Shown: in pieces, positions 7,207 through 8,298 of the stretch
Layout: each line of letters begins with the position of its first letter
How positions within the stretch are numbered: position 1 is the first letter of the stretch
Source: Isoetes taiwanensis
Lineage: Eukaryota; Streptophyta; Lycopodiopsida; Isoetales; Isoetaceae
Assembly (NCBI GenBank): GCA_021234155.1
Contig: JAJEKV010000241.1
Location: forward strand, 434,001 to 498,000
DNA: 64,000 nucleotides
Reading direction: 5' to 3'
The notes under the pieces: generated by a model
Told to the model about the DNA's origin: nothing
Seen by the model: the letters and a program-made list of their open reading frames with translations, nothing else
Database searches by the model: none
Made by a program: the position numbers and the translations under genes

Positions 7207-8298
7207 CTAAGGCCTCTCTCTGCGAATCCTCCGTGCTAAGTGAATATCCTTGGGCATAAGGGTAACTCTCTTAGCATGGATAGCTAGAGGTTCCCCTTCC
7301 TCAAGAGCTGGACCAGCTCGCCGGAAGCCTCTTGCGGGGCCGGGTCATTAGAGGGGTAACCCTATAATCGGGTCCGAACTGCTGCAACACCTCTCTAAGG
7401 AGACGCTCGAAGGGCCTTCCTTATCGGAGATTCGTGCACATCCGGAAGTGCCGAATCTCCCTAAACACCCAAGGCATTTTGCCGTTAGGCCCGTGGTGAA
7501 CCCTCTTGGGTTTTTCCGCCTAGGTGGGGGTGGCTTGGGCTGGTTCTTCTTTTTGCTTCCTCCACAACGCTATTTGGACCTCTGGCGGCAATACCACTCA
7601 TTGTACCTCGCCCAAACGAAGGTACTCCTTGTATGCCACCATCTTCCGCTTAAACTTCGCCCGGTCCCTCTTTGAGCTTGAATGCCCGCCTCCCCTACCT
7701 TTTGCTTCTTCACCTCCTTAGGTGGATTCGGCCCACTTAGGGTAGGGTGGCCTCGCGTCGGGGTCCTGCTGCCCCTCCTCCTCCTCTTCCTCCACTTGTG
7801 GCTCCTCCTCCCGTGGGGGCTCTTCAACCGGCCCGGTCCGGTGAGGCCGTCGTTCCTTCTCTTCGTCGCCTTTCTTGCTCCCTCGGCTCCTTTCAGCTCC
7901 CCACTTCTTTTCGGCGACCCTCTCCTCACAGCCACTCCTGACTTTTTTCCTTCCCCTTCTTTTTGGGCCTTTGAAGGGGCCGGCTTCTTCTGGGTCTCGG
8001 TGGTGGTGCTGCTCCTCCACTGTTCTTCAACTTTGTTCCTCCACCTCGATTGTGCGAGGCCCGGTGGCGCGACTTCGTCCGTTCTTTGTGTTCTGCAGGC
8101 GAGGGGCTGCTCTTGGGGCTGCTCGGCATCATGAAAGCTACTCGTGCGGCTAGCTGCTGCTGCTGCTTGAGGCGATTCCTCGCCTCCGGGCTTCGGGCCG
8201 AAGGTGCTCGGGAACTTTCTTCACGTCTTGACCGCTGCTAGGCCATATAGAGAGGGGGGGCCGCCAAACTTCCTAGCTGTTTGTTTGGTGCGTGCCAT
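7207..8298 (-). pseudogene. Histone H3-like protein carried by the retrotransposon (degraded)
   Basis: The ORF starts ATG at 8298 and its first ten residues, MARTKQTARK, equal the start of canonical H3. The same frame then runs open to 7570 except for a TGA at codon 26, and encodes about 230 residues rich in Lys, Arg, Glu, Pro and Ser, ending with an aromatic segment (RWWHTRSTFVWARYNEWY). After a frameshift near 7575 comes the histone fold: KPKR..., FREIRHF (H3: LREIRKY), PFERLLREV (H3: PFQRLVREI), QEASGELVQLL (H3: QEASEAYLVGL), then AIHAKRVTLMPKDIHLARR followed by IRRERP and TAG at 7209-7207, nearly identical to the H3 C-terminus. Further lesions are a TAG at 7522-7520, small indels near 7425 (IRK is readable in the shifted frame where H3 has IRK), and frameshifts near 7330 and 7287. 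The full product would be about 363 residues against 136 for H3, the excess lying in the tail. It would act in chromatin. It lies in sense orientation between PBS and gag. Confidence 0.92.

What the first reader, a model, noticed from the sequence alone, without database searches (positions are those of the whole stretch)
7207..8298. A Ty3/gypsy retrotransposon that carries a histone H3 gene
Sequence shows: between PBS and gag, in sense, an ORF beginning MARTKQTARK and ending AIHAKRVTLMPKDIHLARR plus IRRERP-stop, with αN (REIRHF), α1 (PFERLLREV), α2 (QEASGELVQLL) and α3 pieces in the right order. Established: these are the most conserved parts of eukaryotic H3. Inference: the element captured a host H3 and may place its own H3 in chromatin, for example to affect silencing or direct integration. 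I know of no description of such cargo.
Basis: partly seen in the sequence, partly recalled or inferred. Interest (0 to 1): 0.96.

Follow-up and report, generated by a model that had tools for sequence, protein, structure and literature searches.

The report
Retrotransposons carrying their own histone H3
A large, long-lived family of plant jumping genes carries, as one of its own genes, a modified copy of histone H3 (the protein that DNA is wrapped around) and has kept its histone part nearly unchanged, so the element probably uses it to act on its host's chromatin.

Summary
The window copy is a decayed but full-length Ty3/gypsy chromovirus: LTRs 1,645/1,635 nt, TSD CGGCC, iMet-type PBS, gag-PR-RT-RH-INT-chromodomain. 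Its H3 sequence is broken over three frames.

In the same 1.66-Gb land-plant genome the H3 is an integral gene of a multi-copy family. Seven of ten fetched relatives are full-length and share LTR-PBS-H3-gag-pol-LTR; 6 of 7 have perfect TSDs. A second, related family has an H3 core 82-87/98 identical to host H3 behind a different N-terminus. Genome searches are capped at 150 scored sites, so copy numbers are lower bounds. Of 10 copies chosen by pol frame, 8 carry the H3. Purifying selection is strong: best omega of those tried is 0.02-0.05 for both cores; three copies not chosen for H3 give 0.056-0.083.

I judge it a captured H3 long selected for histone function; nucleosome incorporation is most likely but untested. 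Closest precedents are fungal hAT-borne H3 and viral histones; eight literature searches showed no LTR-element case.

The parts
10517..10521 (.). 5-bp target-site duplication CGGCC (other copy abuts the 3' LTR, outside the window)
8872..10516 (-). 5' LTR, 1645 nt, TGTGACGG...GAGCGTCACA; the 3' LTR lies outside the window at contig C301:431332-432966; LTR-LTR K2P 0.029
8859..8870 (-). primer binding site TGGTATCAGAGC (initiator-Met-tRNA type; assignment recalled)
   Evidence: exact 12-mer at the same place in 6 of 7 full-length relatives
7207..8298 (-). ORF1: H3-domain gene, decayed here (three frames, stops). In the ten relatives fetched for a long frame: 362-372 aa from MARTK(Q/R)T in 8 of 10; 359 aa from another Met in C907; 337 aa with the start lost from frame in C908
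5398..6363 (-). remnant of a second accessory ORF (339 aa in relative C963), no Pfam match
3831..4448 (-). gag (PF03732 above cut-off, PF19259 below)
2655..3401 (-). aspartic protease (PF08284)
1722..2650 (-). reverse transcriptase, in two frames (PF00078)
1202..1561 (-). RNase H (PF17917, just under the curated cut-off)
301..927 (-). integrase core (PF00665, under the curated cut-off)
101..298 (-). GPY/F-like integrase C-terminus; the chromodomain follows and crosses the window start (from window position about 42)
   Evidence: family assignment made on a relative's sequence (SH3_Tf2-1 8e-24, Chromo 1.7e-12)

Best explanation
ORF1 is an integral, long-standing gene of a chromodomain-bearing Ty3/gypsy lineage, captured from a canonical (not centromeric) plant histone H3 and rebuilt with a long new N-terminal part. 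Shown: position, two families, LTR/TSD boundaries, retained H3 core, purifying selection. Inferred, most likely mechanism: the protein pairs with host H4 and is built into nucleosomes, where its altered tail changes what chromatin enzymes and readers can do, most plausibly on element chromatin, to weaken or redirect silencing or to mark chromatin for the element's own chromodomain integrase. The confidence given is for an H3 kept for a chromatin function of this kind; the specific link to silencing or integration is below 0.4.
For: Structure: in 7 of 7 full-length relatives the order is 5' LTR, PBS, H3 ORF, accessory ORF sequence, gag, PR, RT, RH, INT, 3' LTR; 6 of 7 have perfect 5-bp TSDs, as has the window copy. 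The ORF of one relative scores PF00125 at 5.5e-28. Family 2: PF00125 at 1.2e-41, one LTR element with GTGACC on both sides. Selection: NG86 core dN/dS 0 to 0.05 in the 17 pairs printed of 45, pooled pN/pS 0.04 (10 family-1 copies); of six omega values tried the best are 0.02-0.05 (cores) and 0.1 (N-terminal parts) in both families, 83 to 415 lnL units above omega=1; three copies not chosen for H3 give core dN/dS 0.056-0.083. Family 2 versus host H3: synonymous sites near saturation (pS 0.87-0.93, three cores) but protein 82-87/98 identical (five cores), so the capture is old. Residues recalled as DNA contacts or the H3-H3' interface (R63, R69, R72, R83, C110, H113, R116, D123, L126, R129) are unchanged in the ten family-1 cores. 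MARTK(Q/R)T(A/Y)RK is kept in 8 of 10 although the rest of the tail is new, and 150 scored sites match a 41-residue N-terminal query. A relative encodes a chromodomain, 89% identical in the window copy.
Against: No expression, protein or chromatin data exist here. Of 7 pol-selected copies with the core in view, only 1 has H3 open from start to end, and it has a 5-residue deletion in alpha1; 2 more are open for about 350 aa but lack the start or the last helix. Conversely, gag-pol is not one open frame in any of the 7 H3-selected full-length copies (the longest run is 1,266 aa). So no copy examined was open in both, and selection must have acted in source copies not identified here. The copies were picked for long H3 frames. 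Two pol-selected copies change otherwise fixed core positions. The chromodomain looks like the plant type that lacks two of three cage aromatics (my reading against PMC3350952), so reading of H3K9me by it is not assured. Family 2 lacks the canonical first nine residues.
Confidence: 0.7

Rival explanations
1. Soluble decoy: the protein works mainly off DNA, its K4/K9-bearing tail and H3 core titrating host H3 methyltransferases, readers or histone chaperones.
For: MARTK(Q/R)T(A/Y)RK is kept in 8 of 10 family-1 copies while the rest of the tail is replaced; a K9-like [A/P/V][R/H/I/V]K[S/A/T/G]G motif is present in 12 of 14 family-2 linkers with a permissive pattern.
Against: The fold is held tighter than the N-terminal part (best omega tried 0.02-0.05 against 0.1), including positions recalled as DNA contacts, more than a tail decoy needs; family 2 has no canonical N-terminal nine residues.
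Confidence: 0.2
2. Packaging or integration factor: the H3-fold protein, with gag, condenses element RNA/cDNA in the particle or the pre-integration complex.
For: It is the first long ORF after the PBS, ahead of gag, and has basic blocks.
Against: H3 alone does not form a stable octamer (established knowledge), and surfaces recalled as H3-H3' contacts are retained, which points to nucleosome use.
Confidence: 0.1
3. Chance insertion or passenger: a host H3 pseudogene landed once in an element and was amplified without function.
For: The window copy is decayed; most pol-selected copies have a broken H3; hAT-borne H3 copies in P. fijiensis were all inactivated.
Against: Core dN/dS at most 0.083 within families in the pairs used, persistence to near synonymous saturation, presence in two diverged families with homologous LTRs and gene order.
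Confidence: 0.02
4. Two independent captures (family 1 and family 2) rather than one capture followed by divergence; the function would be as in the best explanation.
For: H3 cores of families 1 and 2 are no closer to each other (54-61/98, five family-2 cores) than family 1 is to host H3 (61/98), and the tree does not resolve them.
Against: LTRs 71% alike over 687 nt, INT, PR and gag homologous, and an accessory ORF similar at the same place (E 2e-6 to 7e-6 in 4 of 10 family-1 copies).
Confidence: 0.3

Closest known systems
Plant chromoviruses (chromodomain Ty3/gypsy; PMC3350952, passages seen)
   Same: LTR/PBS/TSD, gag-PR-RT-RH-INT order and integrase C-terminal GPY/F and chromodomain; the pol of one relative is 38-60% identical to the 120 listed proteins, which where named as to organism are plants
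   Different: Carries an H3 ORF and further ORFs between PBS and gag; about 13.2 kb
hAT DNA transposons with captured histone H3 in Dothideomycete fungi (PMC6710886, abstract and passages; PMC3538342, passages)
   Same: A mobile element carrying and amplifying a host H3 gene to tens or hundreds of copies
   Different: DNA transposon; in P. fijiensis all amplified copies were RIP-inactivated, in Pyrenophora the four full-length H3L variants differ by single residues. Here: LTR retrotransposon, long new N-terminal part, two diverged families, strong purifying selection lasting to near synonymous saturation
Single viral histones, e.g. bracovirus CvBV-H4 (PMC9145170, passages; PMC5423620, listing and start of abstract)
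   Same: Parasite-borne host-like core histone (about 87% identity in the fold) with an extended N-terminal tail; the bracovirus H4 joins host nucleosomes and alters expression
   Different: H4 not H3, carrier derived from a DNA virus, tail extension far shorter (recalled); the word 'retrotransposon' does not occur in that review's held text
CENH3/CENP-A
   Same: H3 core with a long divergent N-terminus; family 1 shares RHFQ, TNLLI and VTLM with the recalled Arabidopsis CENH3
   Different: No loop-1 insertion; family 1 core 61/98 to host H3 against 47/97 to recalled CENH3

Membership tests
Ty3/gypsy chromovirus | Paired LTRs with short target-site duplication | tested here: met
   6 of 7 full-length relatives with perfect 5-bp TSD (the seventh's 3' end not resolved); window copy CGGCC; family-2 copy GTGACC
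Ty3/gypsy chromovirus | tRNA primer binding site after the 5' LTR | tested here: met
   TGGTATCAGAGC at 8870-8859 and exactly in 6 of 7 relatives
Ty3/gypsy chromovirus | Order gag-PR-RT-RH-INT | tested here: met
   Pfam hits for RH and INT in the decayed window copy are below cut-off; the one family-2 copy read in full lacks RT
Ty3/gypsy chromovirus | Chromodomain at the integrase C-terminus | tested here: met
   PF00385 E=1.7e-12 on the C976 relative; window copy 89% identical there; not tested in family 2
Histone H3 | H3-type histone fold with alphaN to alpha3 without gaps | tested here: met
   PF00125 5.5e-28 and 1.2e-41; collinear alignment apart from the few residues before alphaN in family 1
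Histone H3 | Canonical about 40-residue N-terminal tail | tested here: not met
   Family 1 keeps only MARTK(Q/R)T(A/Y)RK, then about 250 new residues; family 2 has another N-terminal part
Histone H3 | Incorporation into nucleosomes | not testable with these tools
   needs biochemistry
CENH3 | Longer loop 1 than canonical H3 | tested here: not met
   alignment (CENH3 sequence recalled)
hAT-borne H3 transduplication | TIRs and hAT transposase around the H3 | tested here: not met
   H3 lies between an LTR/PBS and gag-pol; the mobile-element domains found in Pfam are those of an LTR element; TIRs were not searched for as such

The most novel reading that the evidence does not exclude
A chromovirus lineage runs its own chromatin circuit: it deposits an element-encoded H3, with a tail that host silencing enzymes modify badly or differently, and its chromodomain integrase recognises chromatin carrying it, so copies protect themselves and guide new insertions.
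Probability: 0.15. Interest if true: 0.97.

Novelty: new variant of a known kind. Interest (0 to 1): 0.91.

Why it matters
Histone H3 carries the marks by which plants silence transposons (H3K9 methylation; established knowledge). A retroelement that has carried and preserved its own H3 over a time long enough nearly to saturate synonymous sites suggests that transposons can fight or use silencing at the level of the nucleosome itself, and would add LTR retrotransposons to the carriers of histone genes. It supplies many natural H3 variants, with tails replaced and cores preserved, for asking which parts of H3 are needed for silencing and for integration targeting.

Tried and rejected
CENH3 origin: suggested by RHFQ/TNLLI/VTLM, rejected on loop-1 length and identity. 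A plain host pseudogene: rejected. Dating the H3 capture by tree: not resolvable with about 98 residues. Finding the protein outside this genome: 1,799 hits for the whole ORF, of which the 120 listed are H3-domain proteins aligned over at most 44% of the query; the tail alone gave none of 4,273 candidates at E<=1e-3; one weak H3 hit (38%) in viral contigs for the family-2 ORF. Accessory ORFs have no Pfam match. Naming the species: not achieved; rbcL 94-95% identical to the recalled spinach protein shows a land plant; its C-terminal letters recall non-seed plants, from memory only. Literature: eight answered searches on H3 in transposons or in lycophyte genomes listed no LTR retrotransposon with an H3 gene; I judged by listings and opened only PMC12477816, PMC6710886, PMC3538342, PMC3350952 and PMC9145170. 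The library holds no preprints and misses most subscription papers.

Rows dropped: could not place L003 and L006; one search left out the broken or odd cores L002, L004, L005, L007 and L008; the rows with L059 are misaligned (internal deletion) and not used; L048 was printed on the wrong strand and not classified. The ten pol-selected copies are 10 of the 14 rows with a pol frame of 1,164 aa or more; the four left out (C976, C1056:1477944, C1058:4754247, C1067:6732275) already had an H3 row on the same contig and strand, which makes 8 of 10 conservative. One search's longest-run figures are cut at the border of the two fetched pieces; one search gives the true frame for one copy. One search fixed kappa in the null as well; one search replaced it with a profile at fixed kappa, and the free omega value was not printed by the program. 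Structure prediction was not run because its stated rule does not list loci from the genome search.

Full report
1. What is in the window. On the minus strand the window holds a Ty3/gypsy element. A 1,645-nt 5' LTR runs 10516-8872 with TGTGACG...CGTCACA ends; TGGTATCAGAGC follows at 8870-8859. The H3 pieces lie at 8298-7207. gag, PR, RT, RH and INT follow between 4448 and 301, and the GPY/F and chromodomain region crosses the window start. The 3' LTR, fetched from the same contig, is at C301:431332-432966. The target duplication CGGCC stands on both outer sides, and the two LTRs differ at 46 of 1,624 aligned sites. H3 identity is secure for the C-terminal piece (Pfam 1e-8) and the alphaN-alpha1 piece (4e-4 against PDB H3), weak for the N-terminal piece alone and not significant for the alpha2 piece alone. 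This copy is not a working ORF: the pieces are in three frames with stops.

2. The same gene elsewhere in this genome. The window lies in a 1.658-Gb genome of 1,110 contigs. A 53-residue H3 piece of the window gave 3,347 first-look candidates; the best 150 were scored (the window's own included), all at E<=2.3e-11, and 57 of 150 lie in open frames of at least 300 aa. I fetched ten of these, picked for long frames. Seven of ten (C1027, C1049, C1056, C976, C1042, C1061, C908) are full-length elements of about 13.2 kb with one order: 5' LTR, PBS (exact 12-mer in 6 of 7), H3 ORF, about 2.7 kb with further ORF sequence, gag, PR, RT, RH, INT, 3' LTR. The other three (C981, C907, C963) have the H3 ORF with LTR matches but are interrupted or diverged. 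Six of the seven have perfect 5-bp target duplications; the 3' end of the seventh was not resolved. LTR K2P is 0.0135-0.086 over the seven.

3. Is it part of the lineage or of a few copies? I searched with the RT of one relative: 25,340 first-look candidates, 150 scored at 88-100% identity. I picked by eye 27 pairs of RT rows and H3 rows sharing contig and strand; 20 of 27 are 5.1-5.6 kb apart, the other 7 lie 4.0 or 7.4-17.7 kb apart. I then took 10 of the 14 RT rows with a pol frame of 1,164 aa or more, leaving out the four that already shared contig and strand with an H3 row. Of these, 8 of 10 carry H3 ORF sequence at the expected place (in one only the tail falls in the fetched stretch); two show something else there. 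For one of those two an H3 N-terminus lies about 18 kb upstream on the same strand, compatible with a nested insertion, not tested. A 41-residue query made of the element-specific N-terminus (MARTKQTARK plus 31 residues) has 1,206 first-look candidates and 150 scored sites at E<=4.1e-16.

4. A second family. A canonical H3 query gave 9,022 first-look candidates; 150 were scored. Fifteen are 96-98% identical over 136 residues, taken as the host genes; five of these were read. The other 135 are 71-86% identical over about 100-133 residues, 51 of 135 in frames of at least 400 aa. I read 14 of the 135. One fetched in full (L029, C1018) is an LTR element: PBS, a 411-aa ORF with an H3 core at its end, two further ORFs, then a gag-PR-INT frame without RT in this copy. 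It starts with TGTGACG, and GTGACC stands on both sides. The 13 others were fetched as ORF regions only: the core is preserved in 13 of 13, two of them in short frames (260 and 147 aa), and the N-terminal part of about 310 residues varies between subfamilies. The family-1 tail does not match L029, nor the family-2 N-terminal part the H3 ORF of the ten family-1 copies, at E 1e-4. The family-1 LTR matches the family-2 LTR at 71% over 687 nt, gag, PR and INT are homologous, and an accessory ORF similar to family 2's lies at the same place in 4 of 10 family-1 copies. I take the two families as one lineage. The H3 tree does not resolve one capture from two.

5. What the protein looks like. Family 1: MARTK(Q/R)T(A/Y)RK in 8 of 10, then about 250 residues of acidic and basic blocks with a conserved stretch (KVVKKQKVGERAFALQQDREFKRKMVAYKEYLRRWTRYNEWYC, with a few substitutions), then an H3 core 61/98 identical to host H3. 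Family 2: core 82-87/98 identical to host H3 in the five compared, preceded by a basic linker with a K9-like [A/P/V][R/H/I/V]K[S/A/T/G]G motif in 12 of 14 (permissive pattern). Residues that I recall as DNA contacts or H3-H3' contacts are unchanged in the ten family-1 cores; among the pol-selected copies one (L054) changes residue 123 and another (L055) residues 124, 125 and 127. The core has canonical loop lengths, so it is not CENH3. No protein in the search database matches the tail at E<=1e-3.

6. Selection. NG86 over ten family-1 copies: pooled pN/pS 0.04 in the core, 0.22 in the tail; core dN/dS 0 to 0.05 in the 17 pairs printed of 45, at dS up to about 1.1. Family 2, 11 copies: pooled pN/pS 0.09 core, 0.39 N-terminal part, where some pairs are saturated. 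A codon-model profile over six omega values at fixed kappa is best at 0.02-0.05 for family-1 core, at 0.02 (the lowest tried) for family-2 core and at 0.1 for both N-terminal parts; omega=1 is worse by 83 to 415 lnL units. These copies were picked for long frames. As a check, three copies picked by pol (L054, L055, L058) give core dN/dS 0.056-0.083. Against host H3, synonymous sites are near saturation (pS 0.87-0.93, three family-2 cores), yet family 2 differs at only 11-16 of 98 residues (five cores). So the H3 core has been under strong constraint for a long time in the elements that multiplied.

7. Against a tidy picture. Of seven pol-selected copies with the core in view, one has H3 open from start to end, with a 5-residue deletion in alpha1; two are open for about 350 aa but lack the start or the last helix; four are more broken. 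None of the seven H3-selected full-length copies has gag-pol in one frame; the longest run is 1,266 aa. No copy examined was open in both, and none was sought. There is no expression evidence. Counts from the genome search are lower bounds because only 150 candidates are scored.

8. How it probably works. Shown: gene order, boundaries, two families, retained core, constraint. Inferred: constraint centred on the fold is what nucleosome incorporation with host H4 requires, more than a tail decoy would. Established knowledge: plants silence elements through H3K9 methylation. A nucleosome with this H3 would have a foreign or extended tail; in family 1 K4 and K9 remain in 8 of 10, but residue 7 is tyrosine in 7 of those 8 and residue 10 is changed. 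A relative also encodes a chromodomain, the domain class proposed to steer chromoviruses to histone marks (PMC3350952, passages). I therefore favour an effect on silencing or on integration through element-made nucleosomes, and rate the general claim 0.7 and the self-marking version 0.15.

9. Known relatives. Fungal hAT DNA transposons carry captured H3 (PMC6710886, abstract and passages; PMC3538342, passages). Viruses carry histones, the bracovirus H4 with an extended tail being the nearest in behaviour (PMC9145170, passages). Eight answered searches listed no LTR retrotransposon with H3; the library lacks preprints and most subscription papers. I class it as a new variant of a known kind: a chromovirus with a histone gene.

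Noticed in passing
window 37958-39475: A second LTR of the same family, 84% identical to the element's 5' LTR and in the same orientation; a canonical H3 query finds only the one H3 site in the window.
   Followed up: partly
window 15043-16783 and 18703-23169: A repeat present twice, about 89-93% alike; the second copy seems split by a LINE whose reverse-transcriptase-like ORF is 872 aa long (19942-22560, minus strand; LINE by eye, no domain search).
   Followed up: no
L021 2910-3929 (-); L029 4157-4774 and 5152-5640 (+): Accessory ORFs between the H3 gene and gag (339, 205 and 162 aa) without Pfam match.
   Followed up: partly
L029 2102-3037 and L030-L042: An N-terminal part of about 310 residues in family 2, of unknown kind, fused to the H3 core; best omega tried 0.1.
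   Followed up: partly
L043-L047: The five host H3 genes read code for four slightly different proteins (for example T31/H87 against A31/S87 or T87), all with AQEFKTD where recalled Arabidopsis H3 has AQDFKTD.
   Followed up: no
L021 upstream part and L056: A similar ORF (MP.DFPAPSCYHDYVVARRHLFLSKWHAADG...) recurs beside or inside these elements; perhaps another mobile family.
   Followed up: no
L029 5971-8076: A gag-PR frame joined directly to the integrase with no reverse transcriptase between, still open for 701 aa: perhaps a non-autonomous form.
   Followed up: no
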